NCBI RefSeq assembly: GCF_002753895.1
Contig: NZ_NJER01000001.1
Span: 620,001 to 684,000, forward strand
Origin: Halobacteriovorax sp. JY17
Lineage (GTDB): Bacteria > Bdellovibrionota > Bacteriovoracia > Bacteriovoracales > Bacteriovoracaceae
Length of the DNA stretch: 64,000 bases
Direction of reading: 5' to 3'
This document shows positions 41,090 through 64,000 of the stretch, one piece after another. Position numbers and translations under genes: made by a program. The notes beneath the pieces are model-generated. The model did no database searches, was not told the origin of the DNA, and worked only from the letters and a program-made list of their open reading frames with translations. Position 1 is the first letter of the stretch; every line of letters begins with the position of its first letter.

Positions 41090-42444
41090 TTCTTCTCGAC
41101 TTTACTTCTCAGTGTTTTTTCAAGGGCCTTAATAATCTTGACCATTTCAGGACTGGAGTATGTCTTGTAGAGTTCATCAACAATAGGGTGAGGCTTTCCT
41201 CCTCGCTCTTTAAAGTCCAGTAGCTCTCGAACAAATTCACAGGCAATAATGAAAATCTTAGATTCCTGAGGAAGTTTGTTCATACTATTAGTAGAAAAGC
41301 CTTTTCCATTAGTTGTACCGTGGTGGTTTTTGATAATTGTATCAACATCAATTGGAGCTTCAGGATGCTTTCTAATCAGTAAGGCACCGTCAAGAGCGTG
41401 ATTAAAAACTAGGTCCCAATCCTCTTCATTTAGGGAGCTAGACTCTAGTTCTTCAAAGGTTGAAATCTTTGCTAAGTCCTCATTGTCTACAAAGGAAATG
41501 TCTTTAAAGAAACTAGCGTAGGCAAGTCTTTGAGTAATAAGCTCTTGGTCTATACCTAAATTCTTTGCTATTTCATTGGCCACAATCGAAGTCATATGAC
41601 CGTGTTGATATAGGTAGCCACTCTTTGAGTTGATAACTTTATGAAGCACTTGATTTACTTCTGGGGAATCTTTTGAAGCGGAGACCATGCTCTTAACAAT
41701 ACTATCTGTAAGCTGAATAGTGGCACTATTAAAGCCAAGTTTCTTAATTTCTTGTAGAGCAATTTCATAACTCTGGGCGATGACTTCGATCTTCTTGTCC
41801 AAACTTTTGAAGTTATTTTCATCTAGTTTTTGAGAGAGATGATCGGAGACAAAGTTTGTAAAATTATTTTGAAACTCCTTGGGAATATAGAAGAAGCTTA
41901 GACCTTGCTCAATATATTTTTCAACGAGAGACTTTGAATAATGATCGCCGGCGTGAATTCTCTTGATAAATTGATATTCAGTAGCAGTCTTCTTTATTCT
42001 AATGAATACATCACAGCAAGAAGAGTCCAGAGGAAGAAAATAGCGAACTTCAACAGGAATAAACTCTGGAAGAACTCTCTTTTCTAAAGACTCTATGCTC
42101 ACGCCAAGAACTTGCGCGGAAGTACTAATAATTGTCTCCCAATCTTTCTCTTCTTTTATAACGATGAGTTTCTCCTCATCTACGTGATCAAAGGGACCAT
42201 TCACGATCATTGAAACTTCTGAATCACTCTCTTTTAAGTAGTTGAGTAGAATGCTCGCCGTGTTCTCGTCGCCAACTCTGTCTTGCGTAATAATTAAATC
42301 TACATTAGGGAGTATGTTTAGCAGATCAATCGCCTCAGCAGCAGTTGATCTTGGGATAACTTCACTTCCTACATAAGTTTTAAGATTGATTGCAAGAAGA
42401 TCTCTTAAATTTTCATTTTCTTCAATGAGAATTACTTGAGACAC
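41086..42444 (-). CDS. Degenerate receiver plus HD-GYP-like domain protein
   Basis: The 452 residues start with a receiver-like domain (about 1-110: QVILIEENENLRDLLAINL, then DLIITQD). The phospho-acceptor aspartate position seems to be Gln. The C-terminal domain (about 265-440) follows the HD-GYP layout, with HGHMTSIVANEIAKNLGI and IIKNHHGTTNGKGFS. The central HD pair reads FFKDIS and the GYP is replaced, so phosphodiesterase activity is doubtful. It probably acts as a c-di-GMP-related or protein-binding scaffold. Its stop overlaps the start of the FabK-like gene. Confidence 0.8.
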   Translation of the reverse strand: MSQVILIEENENLRDLLAINLKTYVGSEVIPRSTAAEAIDLLNILPNVDLIITQDRVGDENTASILLNYLKESDSEVSMIVNGPFDHVDEEKLIVIKEEKDWETIISTSAQVLGVSIESLEKRVLPEFIPVEVRYFLPLDSSCCDVFIRIKKTATEYQFIKRIHAGDHYSKSLVEKYIEQGLSFFYIPKEFQNNFTNFVSDHLSQKLDENNFKSLDKKIEVIAQSYEIALQEIKKLGFNSATIQLTDSIVKSMVSASKDSPEVNQVLHKVINSKSGYLYQHGHMTSIVANEIAKNLGIDQELITQRLAYASFFKDISFVDNEDLAKISTFEELESSSLNEEDWDLVFNHALDGALLIRKHPEAPIDVDTIIKNHHGTTNGKGFSTNSMNKLPQESKIFIIACEFVRELLDFKERGGKPHPIVDELYKTYSSPEMVKIIKALEKTLRSKVEKK

Positions 42445-56561: not shown

Positions 56562-58448
56562 ATGATTTCACATTTTTTTGGGACACTGCAAAAGATTGGT
56601 AAAGCACTTATGTTGCCAGTGTCAGTTCTTCCTGTAGCAGGTCTCTTGCTGGGGATAGGAAGTTCGGGACTTTCTTGGCTACCTAGTGAAGTCTCAATGG
56701 TTATGGCCCAGGCCGGTGGAGCAATTTTTGGAAATCTTCCACTCATCTTCGCTCTTGGCGTGGTCATAGGTCTTACGGACAATGATGGTGTTGCTTGTAT
56801 TGCGGCCACCGTTGGTTTTGTTGTCCTGCTGGGAACAATGGGTGTCATCGCTGAGATAAACGGCGTACCAACCAAAGAAATTATGGGGATAAAGTCCATC
56901 GAGACAGGAGTCTTTGGTGGGATCATAAGTGGTTTTGTTGCGGCGGTGATGTTTAAGCGGTTTTATAGAATTAAACTTCCAGACTATTTAGGTTTCTTTA
57001 GTGGAAAGAGATTTGTTCCAATTGTTACGGCGTTCGCTATGATTGCAGTGGCGCTAATTCTAAGTGTCATCTGGCCTCCAATTCAAGGAGTAATTAAATA
57101 TACATCACACTACGCAGTTAATGAAAATCCAAACGCGATGGTCTTTCTCTATGGTTTGGTAGAGAGAATGCTAATTCCTTTTGGGCTTCACCATATCTGG
57201 AACGTTCCATTCTTCTTTGAAGCTGGAGAATTTACCAATGCAGTTGGAAAAGTTTTTAACGGTGATGTTAATAGATTCTTTGCAGGCGACCCTACTGCCG
57301 GTTTCCTTGGTGGTGGTTACCTCTTTAAGATGTTTGGCCTACCTGCCGCTGCAATTGCCATGTGGCATACAGCAAAACTTGAGAATAAGAAGCTCGTTGG
57401 AAGTCTTATGATTTCTGCGGCCTTCACTTCTTTTCTAACAGGGATTACCGAGCCTATTGAATTTGCCTTTCTCTTTGTGGCGCCTCTTCTTTATGGGCTT
57501 CACGCTCTTATGGCGGGAACATGTTTTCTCGTGATGAATATGATGGGAGCAAAGCTTGGCTTTACTTTCTCTCATGGACTTATTGACTATGTTCTCTACT
57601 ATCACATGGATACAAAGCCGTGGCTTGTTCTTATCCTAGGGCCAATTACTGCTCTAATTTATTACACAGTTTTTAGAGTGGTGATTCAAAAACTTAATAT
57701 TCTCACTCCAGGAAGAGAAGATAAATCTACAGAAGAAAGTGAAGTTCTTAACGCTACAGATAGGGCAGCGAAGATAATCGAAGGCTTTGGTGGGGTCGCA
57801 AATATTCAAACTCTCGACGCTTGTATTACGAGGCTTAGAGTAAAAGTAAGTGATATAAGTAAGGTGAATAAAGAAAAACTCGTAGATCTTGGTGCAACTG
57901 GAGTAATCTTCATAGGCGAGAATGTACAAGCAATTTTTGGAACACAATCAGATATAATAAAATCCGAAATGGAACAAGTTATCAAGACACCCAACACACA
58001 ACCAACAAGCTCCTTCATTTCTCCAATTGCAGGAGAAGTAAAGGAGCTATGTGATGTTCCAGACAAAGTTTTTAGCGAAGGCTTAATGGGGAAGGGATTT
58101 GCGATTAATCCAAAGAGCGGAAGAATCATCGCTCCATTTGATGGAGAAGTAGTCACTCTCTTTAAAACCAATCACGCTATAGGTCTGAAAGACGGTGAAG
58201 GTAGAGAAGTTCTTATTCACTTTGGAATTGATACTGTGAAATTAAAAGGTGAGGGATTCACTTCTAAAGTACAGAAAGGTGATCGATTCAAAAGCGGCGA
58301 TCTCTTATTAGAAGTTGACCTCAACTTTGTAAGGGAGAACTCTCCTTCTATTATGACTCCAATTATTTTTACAAATAGAGTTGAAGATCTTAAGATTAAT
58401 ACTCTAGGTTCAGTTGTCGAAGGACAATCTAATATAATAGATTTCTAA
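56562..58448 (+). CDS. ptsG: Glucose-type PTS permease, fused EIICBA
   Basis: Imports glucose and phosphorylates it to glucose-6-phosphate. The 628 residues form EIIC (about 1-385; LMLPVSVLPVAGLLLGIGSS, then GLHHIWNVPF and GITEPIEF), EIIB (about 400-475; phospho-Cys C421 in DACITRLRV) and EIIA (about 485-628; H538 and phospho-His H553 in IHFGID). Similarity to E. coli PtsG is high along EIICB, and the EIIA (Crr-like) is fused. AAGGAAG precedes the ATG. First gene of ptsG-ptsH-ptsI; GlcNAc specificity is less likely. Confidence 0.94.
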   Translation: MISHFFGTLQKIGKALMLPVSVLPVAGLLLGIGSSGLSWLPSEVSMVMAQAGGAIFGNLPLIFALGVVIGLTDNDGVACIAATVGFVVLLGTMGVIAEINGVPTKEIMGIKSIETGVFGGIISGFVAAVMFKRFYRIKLPDYLGFFSGKRFVPIVTAFAMIAVALILSVIWPPIQGVIKYTSHYAVNENPNAMVFLYGLVERMLIPFGLHHIWNVPFFFEAGEFTNAVGKVFNGDVNRFFAGDPTAGFLGGGYLFKMFGLPAAAIAMWHTAKLENKKLVGSLMISAAFTSFLTGITEPIEFAFLFVAPLLYGLHALMAGTCFLVMNMMGAKLGFTFSHGLIDYVLYYHMDTKPWLVLILGPITALIYYTVFRVVIQKLNILTPGREDKSTEESEVLNATDRAAKIIEGFGGVANIQTLDACITRLRVKVSDISKVNKEKLVDLGATGVIFIGENVQAIFGTQSDIIKSEMEQVIKTPNTQPTSSFISPIAGEVKELCDVPDKVFSEGLMGKGFAINPKSGRIIAPFDGEVVTLFKTNHAIGLKDGEGREVLIHFGIDTVKLKGEGFTSKVQKGDRFKSGDLLLEVDLNFVRENSPSIMTPIIFTNRVEDLKINTLGSVVEGQSNIIDF

Positions 58449-58461
58449 AAGAGGAATTAAG

Positions 58462-58716
58462 ATGATTAACAAAGATATTACAGTAAAAAAAGAACATGGA
58501 TTACACGCAAGACCTGCTGCTGAATTTGTAAAATTAGCAAGTACTTTTGAAAGTGAAATCACTCTAAAATATAATGACGAAGAAGTCGATGCCAAATCAA
58601 TTATGAGCATTATGTCTCTTGGAGTAAGTACTGGGGAAACTCTAAATATTTCAATTGAAGGGACAGACCAAGACGCTGCCCTAGCGTCGATCACAAACTT
58701 TCTTACAGAAGTTTAA
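58462..58716 (+). CDS. ptsH: Phosphocarrier protein HPr
   Basis: Passes phosphate from EI to the sugar permease. The 84 residues carry the active-site H15 in KKEHGLHARPAA, and S46 in DAKSIMSIMSLG, the position that HPr kinase phosphorylates in many bacteria. Whether an HPr kinase exists here is unknown. GAGG precedes the ATG. It lies 13 bp after ptsG and 2 bp before ptsI, in one operon. Confidence 0.98.
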   Translation: MINKDITVKKEHGLHARPAAEFVKLASTFESEITLKYNDEEVDAKSIMSIMSLGVSTGETLNISIEGTDQDAALASITNFLTEV

Positions 58717-58718
58717 GT

Positions 58719-60416
58719 ATGATCGGAAGAAGTGCCTCTCCAGGCTTTGCCTATGGAAAAATTCTAGTTTTAGAAGACCTCCTTGATTCTGTTAGTGAAT
58801 CAAAGTCAACTGATGTTGATAAAGATATTTCAAAACTAGAGGAAGTCACTTCAGAAGTTGTTAAAGCATTAGAAGAGATTTCAAGTGTTTCAACTCTAAA
58901 AGAGCAAAGAGAAATTTTTGAAGCTCATACTATGCTTGCGGCCGATCCAAGCTTTAAGAAAGAGATCATTAAGTTTATTCAAAAAGAAAAATACTCTCTG
59001 GCCTTTGCTGTTAAATCAGCAGGTCTAAAATACATGGCCCAATTCGAAGCACTAGAAGATGATTACTTTAAAGAGCGAGCCCTAGATATTAAAGATATTA
59101 CGGCCCGTTTTCTCTCCGTTATTTTAGGGCGCCCATTTGCAAACCTAAAAGATTTAACAGAAGAAGTGATTCTTGTCGCCAAGGACTTAACACCTTCTCA
59201 GACCTCGCAGATTAATAAAGAATTTGTAAAAGGGTTTATTACAGAACTTGGTGGCGTAACTTCTCATACGGCAATTATCGCAAGGACGATTCAGGTTCCA
59301 GCAATAGTAGGAGTAAGAGATCTTTTAAGCTCTCTTACTAATGCCCAATCAATTGCTATGGATGGTCTCTCTGGAAGTTTTCATATTGATCCTTCTTCCG
59401 AAATTATTTCTAAGTGGGATAGTGAAATTGAAAGAGAGAAAGAGTTACAACTTATTCTTAATAACTACAAAGAGAAGCCAACAATTACTTCTGATGGTGT
59501 CGCCCTTAAAGTTTTTGGAAATATCTCATCCGTTGAAGATGCTAAAGCTGTTCGAGATGCTGGCGCTGAAGGGGTTGGTCTACTTAGAACAGAATTTCTC
59601 TTTATGGAGACGAACTCTGCACCAAGTGAAGAGAAGCAATTTAACTTCTATAAGCAAATTGCAGAAGTCATGGTTGATCGACCAGTTACAATTAGAACTT
59701 TGGATATTGGCGGTGACAAAGAGGTGAGTTATCTCAATCTTGAAAAAGAAGATAATCCCTTTCTTGGCTATAGAGCGATTAGAATTTGCCTTGATAGAGT
59801 AGACCTCTTCAAAGATCAGCTGCGAGCAATTCTTAGAGCATCTGCTTTTGGTCATTTAAAAATTATGTTACCAATGATTGCAACTTGCGGTGAAATAAGA
59901 AGGGCAAAGGAAATTATTGAAGAATGTAAGCTTGAACTAAGTGAGAAAGGTATCCCTTTTAATGAAAGAATTCCCGTAGGAATAATGATTGAGATTCCGG
60001 CAGCTGCGATTATGGCGGATAAGCTTGCGGAGGAAGTAGACTTCTTCAGTATCGGAACCAACGATCTTATTCAATATACTGTTGCTGTAGATCGCATGAA
60101 CGATAAGATTGCTGACCTCTATTCTTACTTTGACCCTTCAGTGATTAGGCTTATAAAGATGACTATCGACGGAGCGAAAGCAAGTGGAATTGAAGTTGGA
60201 ATGTGTGGTTCCATGGCCTCTGAGCTTGCTCTAACAGAGCTTCTTGTAGGTTTAGGTCTCACATCTTTTAGTGTGACTTCAGGAAGTGTTACTTCTGTTC
60301 GAAAGAATATTATTGAATCAAGCAAAGCCGAAAGCGAAGGTCTTATTCCTTCAATTTTAGAGCAAGCGGATAGAGAAGGAATTCTTCGTCTTTTAAGTGA
60401 GTTACCAAGTCACTAA
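58719..60416 (+). CDS. ptsI: Phosphoenolpyruvate-protein phosphotransferase (Enzyme I)
   Basis: First PTS enzyme; takes phosphate from phosphoenolpyruvate and gives it to HPr. The 565 residues include the phospho-histidine H183 in GGVTSHTAIIAR. The C-terminal PEP-binding barrel has GVGLLRTEFLFM, IRTLDIGGDK, then NDLIQYTVAVDR and the cysteine-containing MCGSMASE. The length is normal. It ends the ptsG-ptsH-ptsI operon; a weak CAGATT/AATCTG hairpin follows near 60472-60488. Confidence 0.97.
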   Translation: MIGRSASPGFAYGKILVLEDLLDSVSESKSTDVDKDISKLEEVTSEVVKALEEISSVSTLKEQREIFEAHTMLAADPSFKKEIIKFIQKEKYSLAFAVKSAGLKYMAQFEALEDDYFKERALDIKDITARFLSVILGRPFANLKDLTEEVILVAKDLTPSQTSQINKEFVKGFITELGGVTSHTAIIARTIQVPAIVGVRDLLSSLTNAQSIAMDGLSGSFHIDPSSEIISKWDSEIEREKELQLILNNYKEKPTITSDGVALKVFGNISSVEDAKAVRDAGAEGVGLLRTEFLFMETNSAPSEEKQFNFYKQIAEVMVDRPVTIRTLDIGGDKEVSYLNLEKEDNPFLGYRAIRICLDRVDLFKDQLRAILRASAFGHLKIMLPMIATCGEIRRAKEIIEECKLELSEKGIPFNERIPVGIMIEIPAAAIMADKLAEEVDFFSIGTNDLIQYTVAVDRMNDKIADLYSYFDPSVIRLIKMTIDGAKASGIEVGMCGSMASELALTELLVGLGLTSFSVTSGSVTSVRKNIIESSKAESEGLIPSILEQADREGILRLLSELPSH

Positions 60417-61592: not shown

Positions 61593-62963
61593 TCATCTTC
61601 TAGGAAAATCTATCCCTGACAAATCATATGGCCTCACTGGGTCAATCCATCCTGGACGAATTATTGTGGGAATTCTATGAAGATTATTCTCAAGCTTTCT
61701 GATTAATTCTTCTTCTTTTCCAAAGTCTTTATAGCCTTCATAGAATAATTGATGATCCCAATCTATCGACTTTAAAGTTCTTTCAAATTGGTTCTTATTT
61801 TGTAAAATTTGTCCGTACAAATCACCGTCAGTTTTTACCAAATCAAGAACGCGCTCATATATATTTCTATATTTTAAATATGTCCTATCTAAATGATTTG
61901 ATAAATCTGAGGCTTGATTTTTAATCGCTGAAATTTTTAATTTGGCTTCATTTCCATAGTATCCAGCACGGGCCATTTCTTGGCATTTTTCGCCATTTGA
62001 AGGAAAGTAATCCCTTAAAAGATTTTCTAATTTTCTACGAGATTTACATTGCTTATCTAGTTGAACAAAATTTTCAATTTTTGAATTTGAACTTAAGTTT
62101 ATGAGGCAATCCTTGGCAAGGTAAAGTTCATAATCAATATCTGAGCTTAAGCAATGATCTATCCAAAAATTTTCAACCAGATAGTCGATTGAATCATTTT
62201 GTTCAAGTAATAGGGTAATTTCTTCATCTAGATTTTGAGATTCTTCTTTCTCAAATTTCTCCACAAGATTTTCCTGCAAGTCATAGCCCCAGTCCTCACC
62301 TTCTTTGTTTTCTAGCGCAGCTTCTAGTTCATACTCATCAGCACTACGATCTAAGACTCTCTTGTATACATTAGAGATAATTTTCTCATTGATAAAAGTT
62401 AAGAGTTCTTCACTTAAATTAAATTTTGGATAAACAAAGAAGAGATTTTCTTCTGGAGTAATAATATCTTTAACAGTAAAAAGGACGAAATCCTTATCTA
62501 ATTTCATCGCTCTACGATATTGCCACTTAAAGAGATAAGAGTTTAGTCTTAGAATACTCTTTTCGCAATCAAGTCCTCTATATGAATTTTGATCATTAAA
62601 GGCCTTATATTGATTAAGGGTATTTTCTCTATCTATGGAATAATCACCATACAAACTAATTGTATCAATCTTTCCATAACTTTCACTTTGTTGAAATTTA
62701 GTGTTGAGCATGCCTTTCACATTTAAATCGCAGACTCTATTATCTGCGAACTCTCTTGCAGGATTCGAGCCTATAAAGGAGTGAGTTCCTATAACTTTTG
62801 CTTCAACCAGAATATCTTCTTTCGTGACATTGAAATTCTTATCCATTACTCGTACAGGAAACTTTCTTTCAAGCAAGACTTCATTAATATTTTTCATTTC
62901 ATCACAATAGACGTTAGACGAAAGTAAAATTAATAAAGGTATTATCTTTTTTAGCGTACTCAT
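61593..62963 (-). CDS. Secreted protein of unknown function (456 aa)
   Basis: A signal peptide (MSTLKKIIPLLILLSSNVYC) with a terminal cysteine could even be read as a weak lipobox (SSNVYC). The mature chain has a beta-rich N-terminal part (ILVEAKVIGTHSF, IDTISLYGDYSIDRE), a very acidic middle (about 210-260) and a helical C-terminal half with charged coiled-coil-like stretches. The N-terminal strands resemble those of lipid- or ligand-binding beta-barrels, but no family is recognised. It is divergent from the Hint-domain gene. Confidence 0.72.
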   Translation of the reverse strand: MSTLKKIIPLLILLSSNVYCDEMKNINEVLLERKFPVRVMDKNFNVTKEDILVEAKVIGTHSFIGSNPAREFADNRVCDLNVKGMLNTKFQQSESYGKIDTISLYGDYSIDRENTLNQYKAFNDQNSYRGLDCEKSILRLNSYLFKWQYRRAMKLDKDFVLFTVKDIITPEENLFFVYPKFNLSEELLTFINEKIISNVYKRVLDRSADEYELEAALENKEGEDWGYDLQENLVEKFEKEESQNLDEEITLLLEQNDSIDYLVENFWIDHCLSSDIDYELYLAKDCLINLSSNSKIENFVQLDKQCKSRRKLENLLRDYFPSNGEKCQEMARAGYYGNEAKLKISAIKNQASDLSNHLDRTYLKYRNIYERVLDLVKTDGDLYGQILQNKNQFERTLKSIDWDHQLFYEGYKDFGKEEELIRKLENNLHRIPTIIRPGWIDPVRPYDLSGIDFPRR

Positions 62964-63066
62964 TCTTCTCTCCTTATAACTATAACTCTCCTACTAAAAG
63001 CAATTCAAAGGCCAACCCAAAGGAACCAATTTCTAACGTCTTAAGGAAATGTGACGCAGTTTACCT

Positions 63067-63100
63067 GTTCCAGATGTGAAACGTGTTTCTAAAGTGGAAC
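63067..63100. promoter_or_regulatory. Nested dyad, candidate activator-binding site
   Basis: GTTCCA/TGGAAC (63067-63072 with 63095-63100) and GAAAC/GTTTC (63078-63082 with 63085-63089) share one centre at 63083.5. The site lies about 60 bp upstream of the sigma-54-like element, where an enhancer-binding activator would sit. Confidence 0.45.
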
Positions 63101-63142
63101 GGCTCTTAAACTAATTTTCAGCCACTTAACAGTCTTAAAAAC

Positions 63143-63159
63143 TGGCACCAAATAAGCAT
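63143..63159 (+). promoter_or_regulatory. Sigma-54-type (-24/-12) promoter
   Basis: TGGCAC (63143-63148) and GC at 63156-63157 have the exact 12-base spacing between the GG and GC dinucleotides of sigma-54 promoters. The two bases before GC are AA rather than TT. The ATG of the Hint-domain gene lies 43 bp further on. Confidence 0.55.
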
Positions 63160-63201
63160 TACTGGATGTACAAGAAATTTTAATCAAGAAAGGGGAAAAG
63201 C

Positions 63202-64000
63202 ATGAATGCAAAGAAATGGATTACAAGCGCATTAATTCTAATGAGCGCAAACTCAATGGCCGCAGGTGGTTTTGCGGAAGCCAGATGTGCTGCGTGGGGA
63301 GATAATCTTACGCAACCTCAGGCAGCTGAGAGATGGAAATGGGCCATGAAGTGTGACGTGGCCAATAGTAGAATTCTTTGGACATATAGAGAGTACACGG
63401 CACCTGACGGTTCTAAGAGACCTGCCTACCCGATCTACGGTCTCTTAGATCAAGACTATAAGAAAGAACCTTCAAATCCTTTAGGATGGTTTCCACCAAA
63501 GAGCGCAAGCGCTGATTGTAATATTCCAGAGAATTATGAAATCGTAGGTTTCTGCGCAGGCGGTTGTTACACAGCAGATCAGCTCATCCTAGTTGATGGA
63601 AGAGAATTATTTATTAAAGATATGCTTGAATCTGAAATTAAGAACGTAATGACTCTAGATCAAGATTCAACCCTAGACTCAATCGCAACTAAGCCTGGAA
63701 AAGTCTTTTCTTATATGAAGTCTATCGTTAGCGGAGTTCATCCAATAATTAAGCTTACAACTGATAGCGGGAAGAACTTAAGCGTAACACTAGAGCATCC
63801 TCTCGTAAAAGCTGACGGAACTTTCATTGTGGCCCAAGACTTAGAAGTTGGATCTAAATTACTTAATGAGTTTGGAGAAATTGAAGTTGTCACTTCTATT
63901 GCTCAAGAGGAAGTTGAAGGAAAAGTTTACAACCTAAGAACAGAAGGTGCAGAAGAAACTGACCGTGTCATCGTTGCTCAAGGCTTACTCAATGGAGACT
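63202..64000 (+). CDS. Secreted Hint (hedgehog/intein-like) domain protein, 3' end beyond window
   Basis: The reading frame is open from the ATG at 63202 to the window edge (266 residues), with AGGGGAAAAG as Shine-Dalgarno. The signal peptide MNAKKWITSALILMSANSMA is followed by about 95 residues with cysteines, then a Hint-type domain. C122 starts it in GGCYTADQLILVDG; block-B-like TLEHPLVKADG (H199) and AQDLEVGSKLL follow; the last strands read EGKVYNLRTEGAEETDRVIV and AQGLLNGD. Hint domains self-splice or self-cleave in inteins, hedgehog and secreted bacterial proteins. A partner domain may lie past the right edge. Confidence 0.75.
   Translation, partial: MNAKKWITSALILMSANSMAAGGFAEARCAAWGDNLTQPQAAERWKWAMKCDVANSRILWTYREYTAPDGSKRPAYPIYGLLDQDYKKEPSNPLGWFPPKSASADCNIPENYEIVGFCAGGCYTADQLILVDGRELFIKDMLESEIKNVMTLDQDSTLDSIATKPGKVFSYMKSIVSGVHPIIKLTTDSGKNLSVTLEHPLVKADGTFIVAQDLEVGSKLLNEFGEIEVVTSIAQEEVEGKVYNLRTEGAEETDRVIVAQGLLNGD

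What the first reader, a model, noticed from the sequence alone, without database searches (positions are those of the whole stretch)
63067..64000. Secreted Hint-domain protein behind a sigma-54 promoter with an upstream dyad
The protein combines a signal peptide, a cysteine-containing N-terminal segment and a Hint self-processing domain. Its promoter has correct -24/-12 spacing, and a nested palindrome lies where an enhancer-binding protein would bind. Secreted Hint domains appear in toxin or surface-protein maturation, so this may be a conditionally expressed self-cleaving exoprotein.
Basis: partly seen in the sequence, partly recalled or inferred. Interest (0 to 1): 0.6.

Follow-up and report, generated by a model that had tools for sequence, protein, structure and literature searches.

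The report
Secreted Hint protein beside pore-former
In bacteria related to the predators Bdellovibrio and Halobacteriovorax, an exported protein ending in a self-cleaving (Hedgehog/intein-type) domain is repeatedly encoded beside a perforin-like pore-forming protein, and here it sits under a shared switch for exported proteins, which suggests an unrecognised way of maturing or attaching a secreted weapon.

Summary
The protein (293 aa, ending 83 nt past the window) has a signal peptide, a 4-Cys domain (N-dom) and a Hint domain with intact N-side chemistry (Cys122, T196xxH199). No partner domain follows. In 33 non-redundant relatives Cys122 and His199 are invariant, and the C-terminal His-Asn of inteins is always replaced (invariant Gly265, then Ser/Asp/Thr). 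So N-side cleavage or thioester transfer (Hedgehog-like) is predicted, not splicing and not PT-HINT toxin release. The promoter is real: the dyad is two GTTYC-N6-GRAAC sites shared by divergent sigma-54 promoters, conserved in three genomes. The joint pattern occurs 14 times in five genus genomes (0 in the reversed control), always just upstream of genes for exported proteins. Downstream lie a subtilase lipoprotein, a membrane-anchored helper and a MACPF/CDC-like pore-former with LRR and Kelch repeats. N-dom and/or Hint genes lie within 6.5 kb of 12 of the 15 strongest MACPF-like hits in the phylum, and a second Hint subfamily with another N-domain sits beside MACPF genes too. Cleavage, the nucleophile, the activator and the role in predation are untested.

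The parts
63067..63082 (.). EBP-type site 1: GTTCCAGATGTGAAAC (GTTYC-N6-GRAAC)
   Evidence: conserved upstream of the orthologues in G001 and G003
63085..63100 (.). EBP-type site 2: GTTTCTAAAGTGGAAC; together with site 1 forms the 34-bp nested dyad
63143..63157 (+). sigma-54-type promoter of the Hint gene: TGGCACCAAATAAGC (GG at -24, GC at -12, 10 nt between)
   Evidence: -24 TGGCAC and -12 GC conserved in three genomes; RpoN present
63000..63015 (-). divergent sigma-54-type promoter TTGGCCTTTGAATTGC towards the 456-aa gene
   Evidence: orthologous divergent promoters in G001 and G003
61593..62963 (-). divergently transcribed exported protein (456 aa), no Pfam/NCBIfam family, conserved opposite the Hint gene in the genus
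63191..63195 (+). ribosome-binding site AGGGG
   Evidence: sequence
63202..64000 (+). N-dom + Hint protein CDS (runs to 64083 in contig, 293 aa)
   Evidence: L002:202-1083
63202..63264 (+). signal peptide (residues 1 to about 21, MNAKKWITSALILMSANSMAA)
   Evidence: sequence; aligned N-termini of homologues
63265..63564 (+). N-dom (residues 22-121) with invariant C29, C51, C106, C118; also occurs without Hint in Bdellovibrio-like genomes
63565..63999 (+). Hint domain (residues 122-266): nucleophile Cys122, TxxH T196/H199, N244; intein HN position = G265-D266
   Evidence: conserved tail Q270, N278, R283 lies beyond the window

Best explanation
The gene heads an exported operon under sigma-54 control: N-dom-Hint protein, subtilase-type lipoprotein, N-terminally anchored helper (P220), and a secreted MACPF/CDC-like pore-former carrying LRR and Kelch repeats. 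An unidentified enhancer-binding protein would act at the paired GTTYC-N6-GRAAC sites and switch on this operon and the divergent exported gene as part of a wider exoprotein regulon. After export, the N-dom (probably two disulfides) folds and the Hint domain attacks the G121-C122 bond through Cys122, giving a thioester. With no C-terminal His-Asn and no C-extein it cannot splice. The thioester is resolved on the N-side only, by hydrolysis or by another nucleophile, freeing or transferring the N-dom (or, in Bdellovibrio-like species, a whole PKD/TSP1 lipoprotein ectodomain ending in N-dom). The released N-dom most likely serves the neighbouring pore-former (partner, chaperone or self-protection factor), with the subtilase as a plausible processing protease. 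Shown: gene content, domains, catalytic-residue conservation, cis-elements and their conservation, linkage to MACPF-like genes. Inferred: cleavage, export route, N-dom role, antibacterial or predatory use.
For: Hint fold Z 18-19.7 with residue 122 aligned to intein residue 1 / Hh C258. Invariant C122 and H199 (33/33), T196 31/33 (2 Ser), small residue at -1 (Ser 21 / Gly 12), C-terminal HN replaced in 33/33. Proteins end 22-31 aa after the Hint core in 31/33. Hint-less N-dom genes in tandem directly upstream of a MACPF-like gene in G157 and G160. Gene order Hint-S8-P220-MACPF in seven loci, including distant families. MACPF fold by AF2 and Foldseek/VIA. 12 of the 15 strongest MACPF-like hits have an N-dom and/or Hint hit within 6.5 kb; about 0.7% expected per gene. 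In the genus, G000/G001/G003 have both genes, G002/G004 have neither in full form. A second Hint subfamily with another N-domain is also beside MACPF genes. Promoter and dyad conserved; joint pattern 14 vs 0 in control, all before ORFs with signal-peptide-like starts (simple hydropathy test 13/14 vs 19/47 background, P 7e-5); RpoN present.
Against: No autocleavage data. N-dom has no solved or named relative, so its role is a guess from neighbourhood. In Bdellovibrio-like genomes the full N-dom-Hint lipoprotein lies far from the MACPF gene; there only Hint-less N-dom genes are adjacent and P220 is the Hint neighbour. The subtilase is missing in G003 and its Asp is Glu in several species. The MACPF profile A5 was seeded from Hint neighbours, which biases the co-location count; many weaker MACPF hits have no Hint nearby. 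Cys118 lies 4 residues before Cys122 and could hold it in a disulfide. The EBP is unidentified. The hydropathy test scores the window Hint protein itself just below its threshold.
Confidence: 0.6

Rival explanations
1. The Hint domain is present but not used as a cleaving enzyme: it is a structural or binding module, or is kept silent outside the cell by a Cys118-Cys122 disulfide.
For: C118 and C122 are both invariant, and exported proteins meet oxidising conditions. Catalytic-cysteine disulfides are known to stop inteins (PMC6195587).
Against: T196/H199 would not need strict conservation in a silent domain. C118 is also kept in N-dom-only proteins that lack Cys122, so it more likely pairs within N-dom.
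Confidence: 0.2
2. Hedgehog-like transfer: the thioester is attacked by a specific acceptor (lipid, cell-wall amine or a partner protein such as the MACPF protein or P220), so that N-dom or the ectodomain becomes covalently attached rather than simply released. The conserved tail (Q270, N278, R283) would bind the acceptor.
For: Architecture as in Hog: N-domain, Hint, short conserved C-terminal region, no Asn. P220 follows Hint directly in many loci and a P220-like stretch is fused behind the tail in L019 (P220 E 1.4e-7).
Against: Position 173, which by spacing corresponds to the Hog Asp46 (entry 6tyy), is Thr/Lys, not Asp, so cholesterol-type activation is not indicated. No acceptor known.
Confidence: 0.25
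3. PT-HINT polymorphic-toxin type: the Hint domain releases a C-terminal toxin.
For: Best Pfam profile is PT-HINT, above cut-off.
Against: Nothing but a 27-28-aa conserved tail follows the Hint domain, in 31 of 33 homologues; no C-terminal HN.
Confidence: 0.03
4. Intein or A-type BIL: the domain splices or cleaves at its C-terminus by Asn cyclisation.
For: Closest folds are DnaB/RecA mini-inteins and BIL domains.
Against: HN dipeptide absent in all 33 sequences; no C-extein.
Confidence: 0.02
5. The sigma-54-like promoter and dyad are coincidental and the gene is expressed from a sigma-70 promoter.
For: The -12 element alone is weak (AAGC) and the single-element counts are near chance.
Against: Conserved -24/-12 and dyad in G001 and G003, divergent second promoter in all three, 14 joint matches vs 0 in control, all at 23-53 nt before exported-protein starts.
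Confidence: 0.07

Closest known systems
Hedgehog C-terminal autoprocessing domain (Hog-Hint)
   Same: N-domain + Hint + short C-terminal region at the protein end; Cys1 and TxxH kept, no C-terminal Asn
   Different: Bacterial; N-domain is an unrelated 4-Cys domain; the Hog Asp46 position is Thr/Lys; tail is about 28 aa, not a sterol-recognition region
B-type bacterial intein-like (BIL) domains
   Same: Bacterial Hint with intein motifs except the C-terminal one; N-side cleavage (review PMC7765530)
   Different: BILs are described in hypervariable, non-conserved proteins and have C-flanks; this family is strictly conserved in architecture and always ends the protein; no B-type profile was available to test
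PT-HINT (PF07591) of polymorphic toxins
   Same: Profile match above cut-off, secreted protein
   Different: No C-terminal toxin
MACPF / CDC / SNTX pore-formers and Bacteroidota CDCL antibacterial toxins (PMC11169675)
   Same: Neighbouring gene has this fold and an invariant GlyGly. In the CDCL system activation is by a surface lipoprotein protease and immunity by a lipoprotein, comparable to the subtilase lipoprotein here
   Different: Not the two-component CDCL pair; carries LRR + Kelch repeats; companion genes include N-dom-Hint and P220, not reported for CDCLs

Membership tests
Hint superfamily | horseshoe Hint fold | tested here: met
   AF2 pLDDT about 90 over the domain; VIA Z 19.7 to DnaB mini-intein, 18.6 BIL 2lwy, 18.0 Hh 1at0
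Hint superfamily | N-terminal Cys/Ser nucleophile and block B TxxH | tested here: met
   C122 33/33, T196 31 T + 2 S, H199 33/33; TIGR01445 above cut-off starting at residue 122
Intein / A-type BIL | C-terminal His-Asn | tested here: not met
   aligned positions are G265 (33/33) and S/D/T/A266 (mapping rows ending at 266)
Intein | C-extein beginning with Cys/Ser/Thr | tested here: not met
   protein ends 22-31 aa later in 31/33
PT-HINT polymorphic toxin | toxin domain behind HINT | tested here: not met
PT-HINT polymorphic toxin | PF07591 profile above cut-off | tested here: met
   32.1 vs 27.7 bits
Hog (Hedgehog) | Cys1 + TxxH without C-terminal Asn, at protein C-terminus | tested here: met
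Hog (Hedgehog) | Asp46 for sterol activation | tested here: inconclusive
   position 173, mapped by spacing to the TxxH His, is T 17 / K 10 of 33; mapping not verified structurally
Hog (Hedgehog) | covalent lipid transfer | not testable with these tools
   needs biochemistry
B-type BIL | intein motifs kept except the C-terminal motif; N-side cleavage | tested here: inconclusive
   sequence pattern fits; cleavage and subtype profile not tested
sigma-54 promoter | GG at -24 and GC at -12, 10 nt apart, with RpoN encoded | tested here: met
sigma-54 promoter | start site about 12 nt after -12 and dependence on RpoN/EBP | not testable with these tools
   no expression data
MACPF/CDC superfamily (neighbour gene, outside the window) | MACPF/CDC fold | tested here: met
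   Foldseek SNTX 4e-6 and mostly MACPF/CDC hits; VIA Z 9.8-8.0. No Pfam MACPF hit, model pLDDT 77
Peptidase S8 (neighbour gene, outside the window) | Asp-His-Ser triad | tested here: met
   PF00082 34.8 bits, cut-off 21.8; Asp, His, Ser present in the window strain; Asp becomes Glu in several relatives

The most novel reading that the evidence does not exclude
A bacterial counterpart of Hedgehog processing that arms a pore-former: the exported Hint domain activates the N-dom as a thioester and hands it to a specific acceptor (lipid, cell wall or the MACPF/P220 partner), covalently placing a pore-former cofactor or adhesin at the predator-prey interface, across the Bdellovibrionota.
Probability: 0.15. 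Interest if true: 0.88.

Novelty: new variant of a known kind. Interest (0 to 1): 0.6.

Why it matters
Bacterial Hint domains outside inteins are mostly known from hypervariable or toxin proteins with no settled function. Here one family keeps a fixed architecture across much of a phylum (86 of 369 genomes match the profile; the weakest of these matches are partial). It is tied to MACPF/CDC-like pore-formers, with strictly conserved N-side chemistry and no splicing chemistry. That makes the question of what Hint domains do in bacteria testable in culturable predators. The cis-regulatory code found here (paired GTTYC-N6-GRAAC sites plus a sigma-54 promoter before exported proteins) gives a ready regulon prediction for Halobacteriovorax exoproteins. 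My searches of the open-access library for Hint + Bdellovibrio, Bacteriovorax + sigma-54 and MACPF + Bdellovibrio found no paper that by title or abstract describes these links; subscription papers are not held.

Tried and rejected
Looked past the right edge for a partner/toxin domain: none. Single-sequence genome-contig scan found nothing; the alignment query found 7 named loci. Tried to find the EBP by presence/absence of PF00158 proteins in the genus: no obvious candidate, since the EBP groups seem to have counterparts in G004, which lacks the joint pattern; no EBP gene lies close to the regulon sites in G000. Rfam: no hits in the window. PDB profile search gave hits only for the Hint part, none for N-dom; N-dom was not folded alone, so a known fold for it is not excluded. 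PT-HINT and intein readings rejected on the C-terminal features. The redox-switch idea was weakened because Hint-less N-dom proteins keep C118.

Full report
Setting. The window is G000:C1:620001-684000 of a 3.47 Mb genome in 5 contigs.

Protein. Reading past the edge, the ORF at 63202 ends at contig position 684083, 293 aa. It has a signal-peptide-like start, an N-terminal 4-Cys domain (N-dom, about residues 22-121), a Hint domain (122-266) and a 27-aa tail. Pfam gives PT-HINT (32.1 bits, cut-off 27.7) and, below its cut-off, Intein_splicing. NCBIfam gives intein_Nterm above cut-off, with profile position 1 on Cys122. A profile of homologues finds the Clostridium BIL domain 2lwy and the MJ0781 intein. 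The AF2 model (pLDDT about 90 over the Hint part) aligns with DnaB/RecA inteins, BILs and Hedgehog at Z 18-19.7; residue 122 falls on intein residue 1 / Hh 258, and several rows end at residue 266, the intein C-terminal Asn position.

Catalytic anatomy. In 33 non-redundant N-dom+Hint sequences C29, C51, C106, C118, C122, H199, P200, A211, N244, G261, G265, Q270 and N278 are invariant; T196 is Thr (31) or Ser (2); residue -1 is Ser (21) or Gly (12). The intein His-Asn is G265 plus S/D/T/A. 31 of 33 proteins end 22-31 aa after G265; the other two (L019, L020) carry a C-terminal extension of about 160 aa, P220-like in L019. The pattern is that of Hog or B-type BIL: acyl shift possible, Asn cyclisation not. 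Position 173, which by spacing corresponds to the Hog Asp46, is Thr/Lys, so sterol chemistry is not indicated.

Promoter. The dyad is GTTCCAGATGTGAAAC-GT-GTTTCTAAAGTGGAAC: two GTTYC-N6-GRAAC sites, 63067-63082 and 63085-63100. The -24/-12 element of the Hint gene is at 63143-63157. In G001 and G003 the site pair (with small deviations), the TGGCAC and the -12 GC are conserved. On the other side of the dyad a sigma-54 promoter faces the divergent 456-aa exported gene in all three genomes. The joint pattern GTTYC-N6-GRAAC-N25..55-TTGGC-N9-GC has 14 matches in 5 genus genomes and 0 for the reversed control. All 14 lie 23-53 nt before a start codon of an ORF with a signal-peptide-like or lipobox N-terminus (hydropathy test 13/14 vs 19/47 background ORFs, P 7e-5). 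RpoN is encoded. The EBP is not identified.

Operon. Downstream are a subtilase lipoprotein (PF00082; Asp/His/Ser present), P220 with an N-terminal anchor-like segment, and a 947-aa protein with LRR and Kelch repeats. The N-terminal part of the 947-aa protein models as MACPF/CDC/SNTX (pLDDT 77; Foldseek best 4e-6; VIA Z 9.8-8.0), with an invariant GlyGly. The order Hint-S8-P220-MACPF recurs in seven loci including other families. Variants lack S8 (G003), lack P220 (L022), or place MACPF first (L024, L019, L020).

Distribution. The Hint alignment matches 86 of 369 Bdellovibrionota genomes; the lowest-scoring matches are partial. In Bdellovibrio-like genomes N-dom-Hint ends a lipoprotein of about 913 aa with PKD and TSP1 domains, followed by P220; separate tandem Hint-less N-dom genes precede a MACPF-like gene. 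A second Hint subfamily with a different N-domain (RITAPVDPA...CxCGC) also lies next to MACPF-like genes in L117-L120. Of the 15 strongest MACPF-like hits in 291 genomes, 12 have an N-dom and/or Hint hit within 6.5 kb, against about 0.7% expected by chance per gene; the other 3 lie on contigs without a Hint hit, two of them near a contig start (G335, G295). Weaker hits are less often linked, 22 of 42 at E <= 1e-10. The profile was seeded from Hint neighbours, which biases this count. In the genus, the species with the Hint gene have exactly one MACPF-like gene, in this cluster; G002 has only a weak partial match and G004 none.

Interpretation. Best reading: a conditionally expressed exported module in which the Hint domain performs N-side self-processing of a 4-Cys domain that serves a MACPF-like pore-former. 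Shown: anatomy, conservation, cis-elements, linkage. Inferred: cleavage, nucleophile, role, target. The Bacteroidota CDCL system, where a surface lipoprotein protease activates a CDC-like pore-former and a lipoprotein gives immunity (PMC11169675), shows that such companion functions exist, but this module is not a CDCL pair.

Verdict. Observation confirmed; interpretation partly supported and extended; new variant of the Hint kind. The linkage to pore-formers is what a specialist would find surprising.

Noticed in passing
L117:2762-3505, L118:4232-5002, L119:4081-4887, L120:5448-6341, L116:2414-8290, L121, L122: A second secreted Hint subfamily with a different cysteine-containing N-domain ending in CxCGC before the Hint Cys; beside MACPF-like genes in four loci, in three tandem copies in L116.
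   Followed up: partly
L076:4317-7058: Bdellovibrio-like genomes carry an approximately 913-aa PKD + TSP1 lipoprotein ending in N-dom-Hint, followed by a P220 relative; conserved across genus g71.
   Followed up: partly
L074:1300-3504 and L127:1993-8000: Tandem small exported N-dom-only proteins directly upstream of a cluster of two to three MACPF-like genes.
   Followed up: partly
L042 (G000:C3:456500-460500) and L017: Another member of the predicted regulon: a small exported protein (DADCNCGPADDGDPNVGYRT motif) conserved in G000 and G001; in G001 two further ORFs follow it directly.
   Followed up: no
window 61593-62963 (-): Divergent 456-aa exported protein of unknown family, sharing the dyad and conserved in the genus.
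   Followed up: partly
window 41721-41735 (+): A second TGGCAC-N7-GC match in the window, not examined.
   Followed up: no
window 56562-60416: PTS operon (EIICBA-type transporter, HPr, enzyme I) lying upstream of the exported-protein genes.
   Followed up: no
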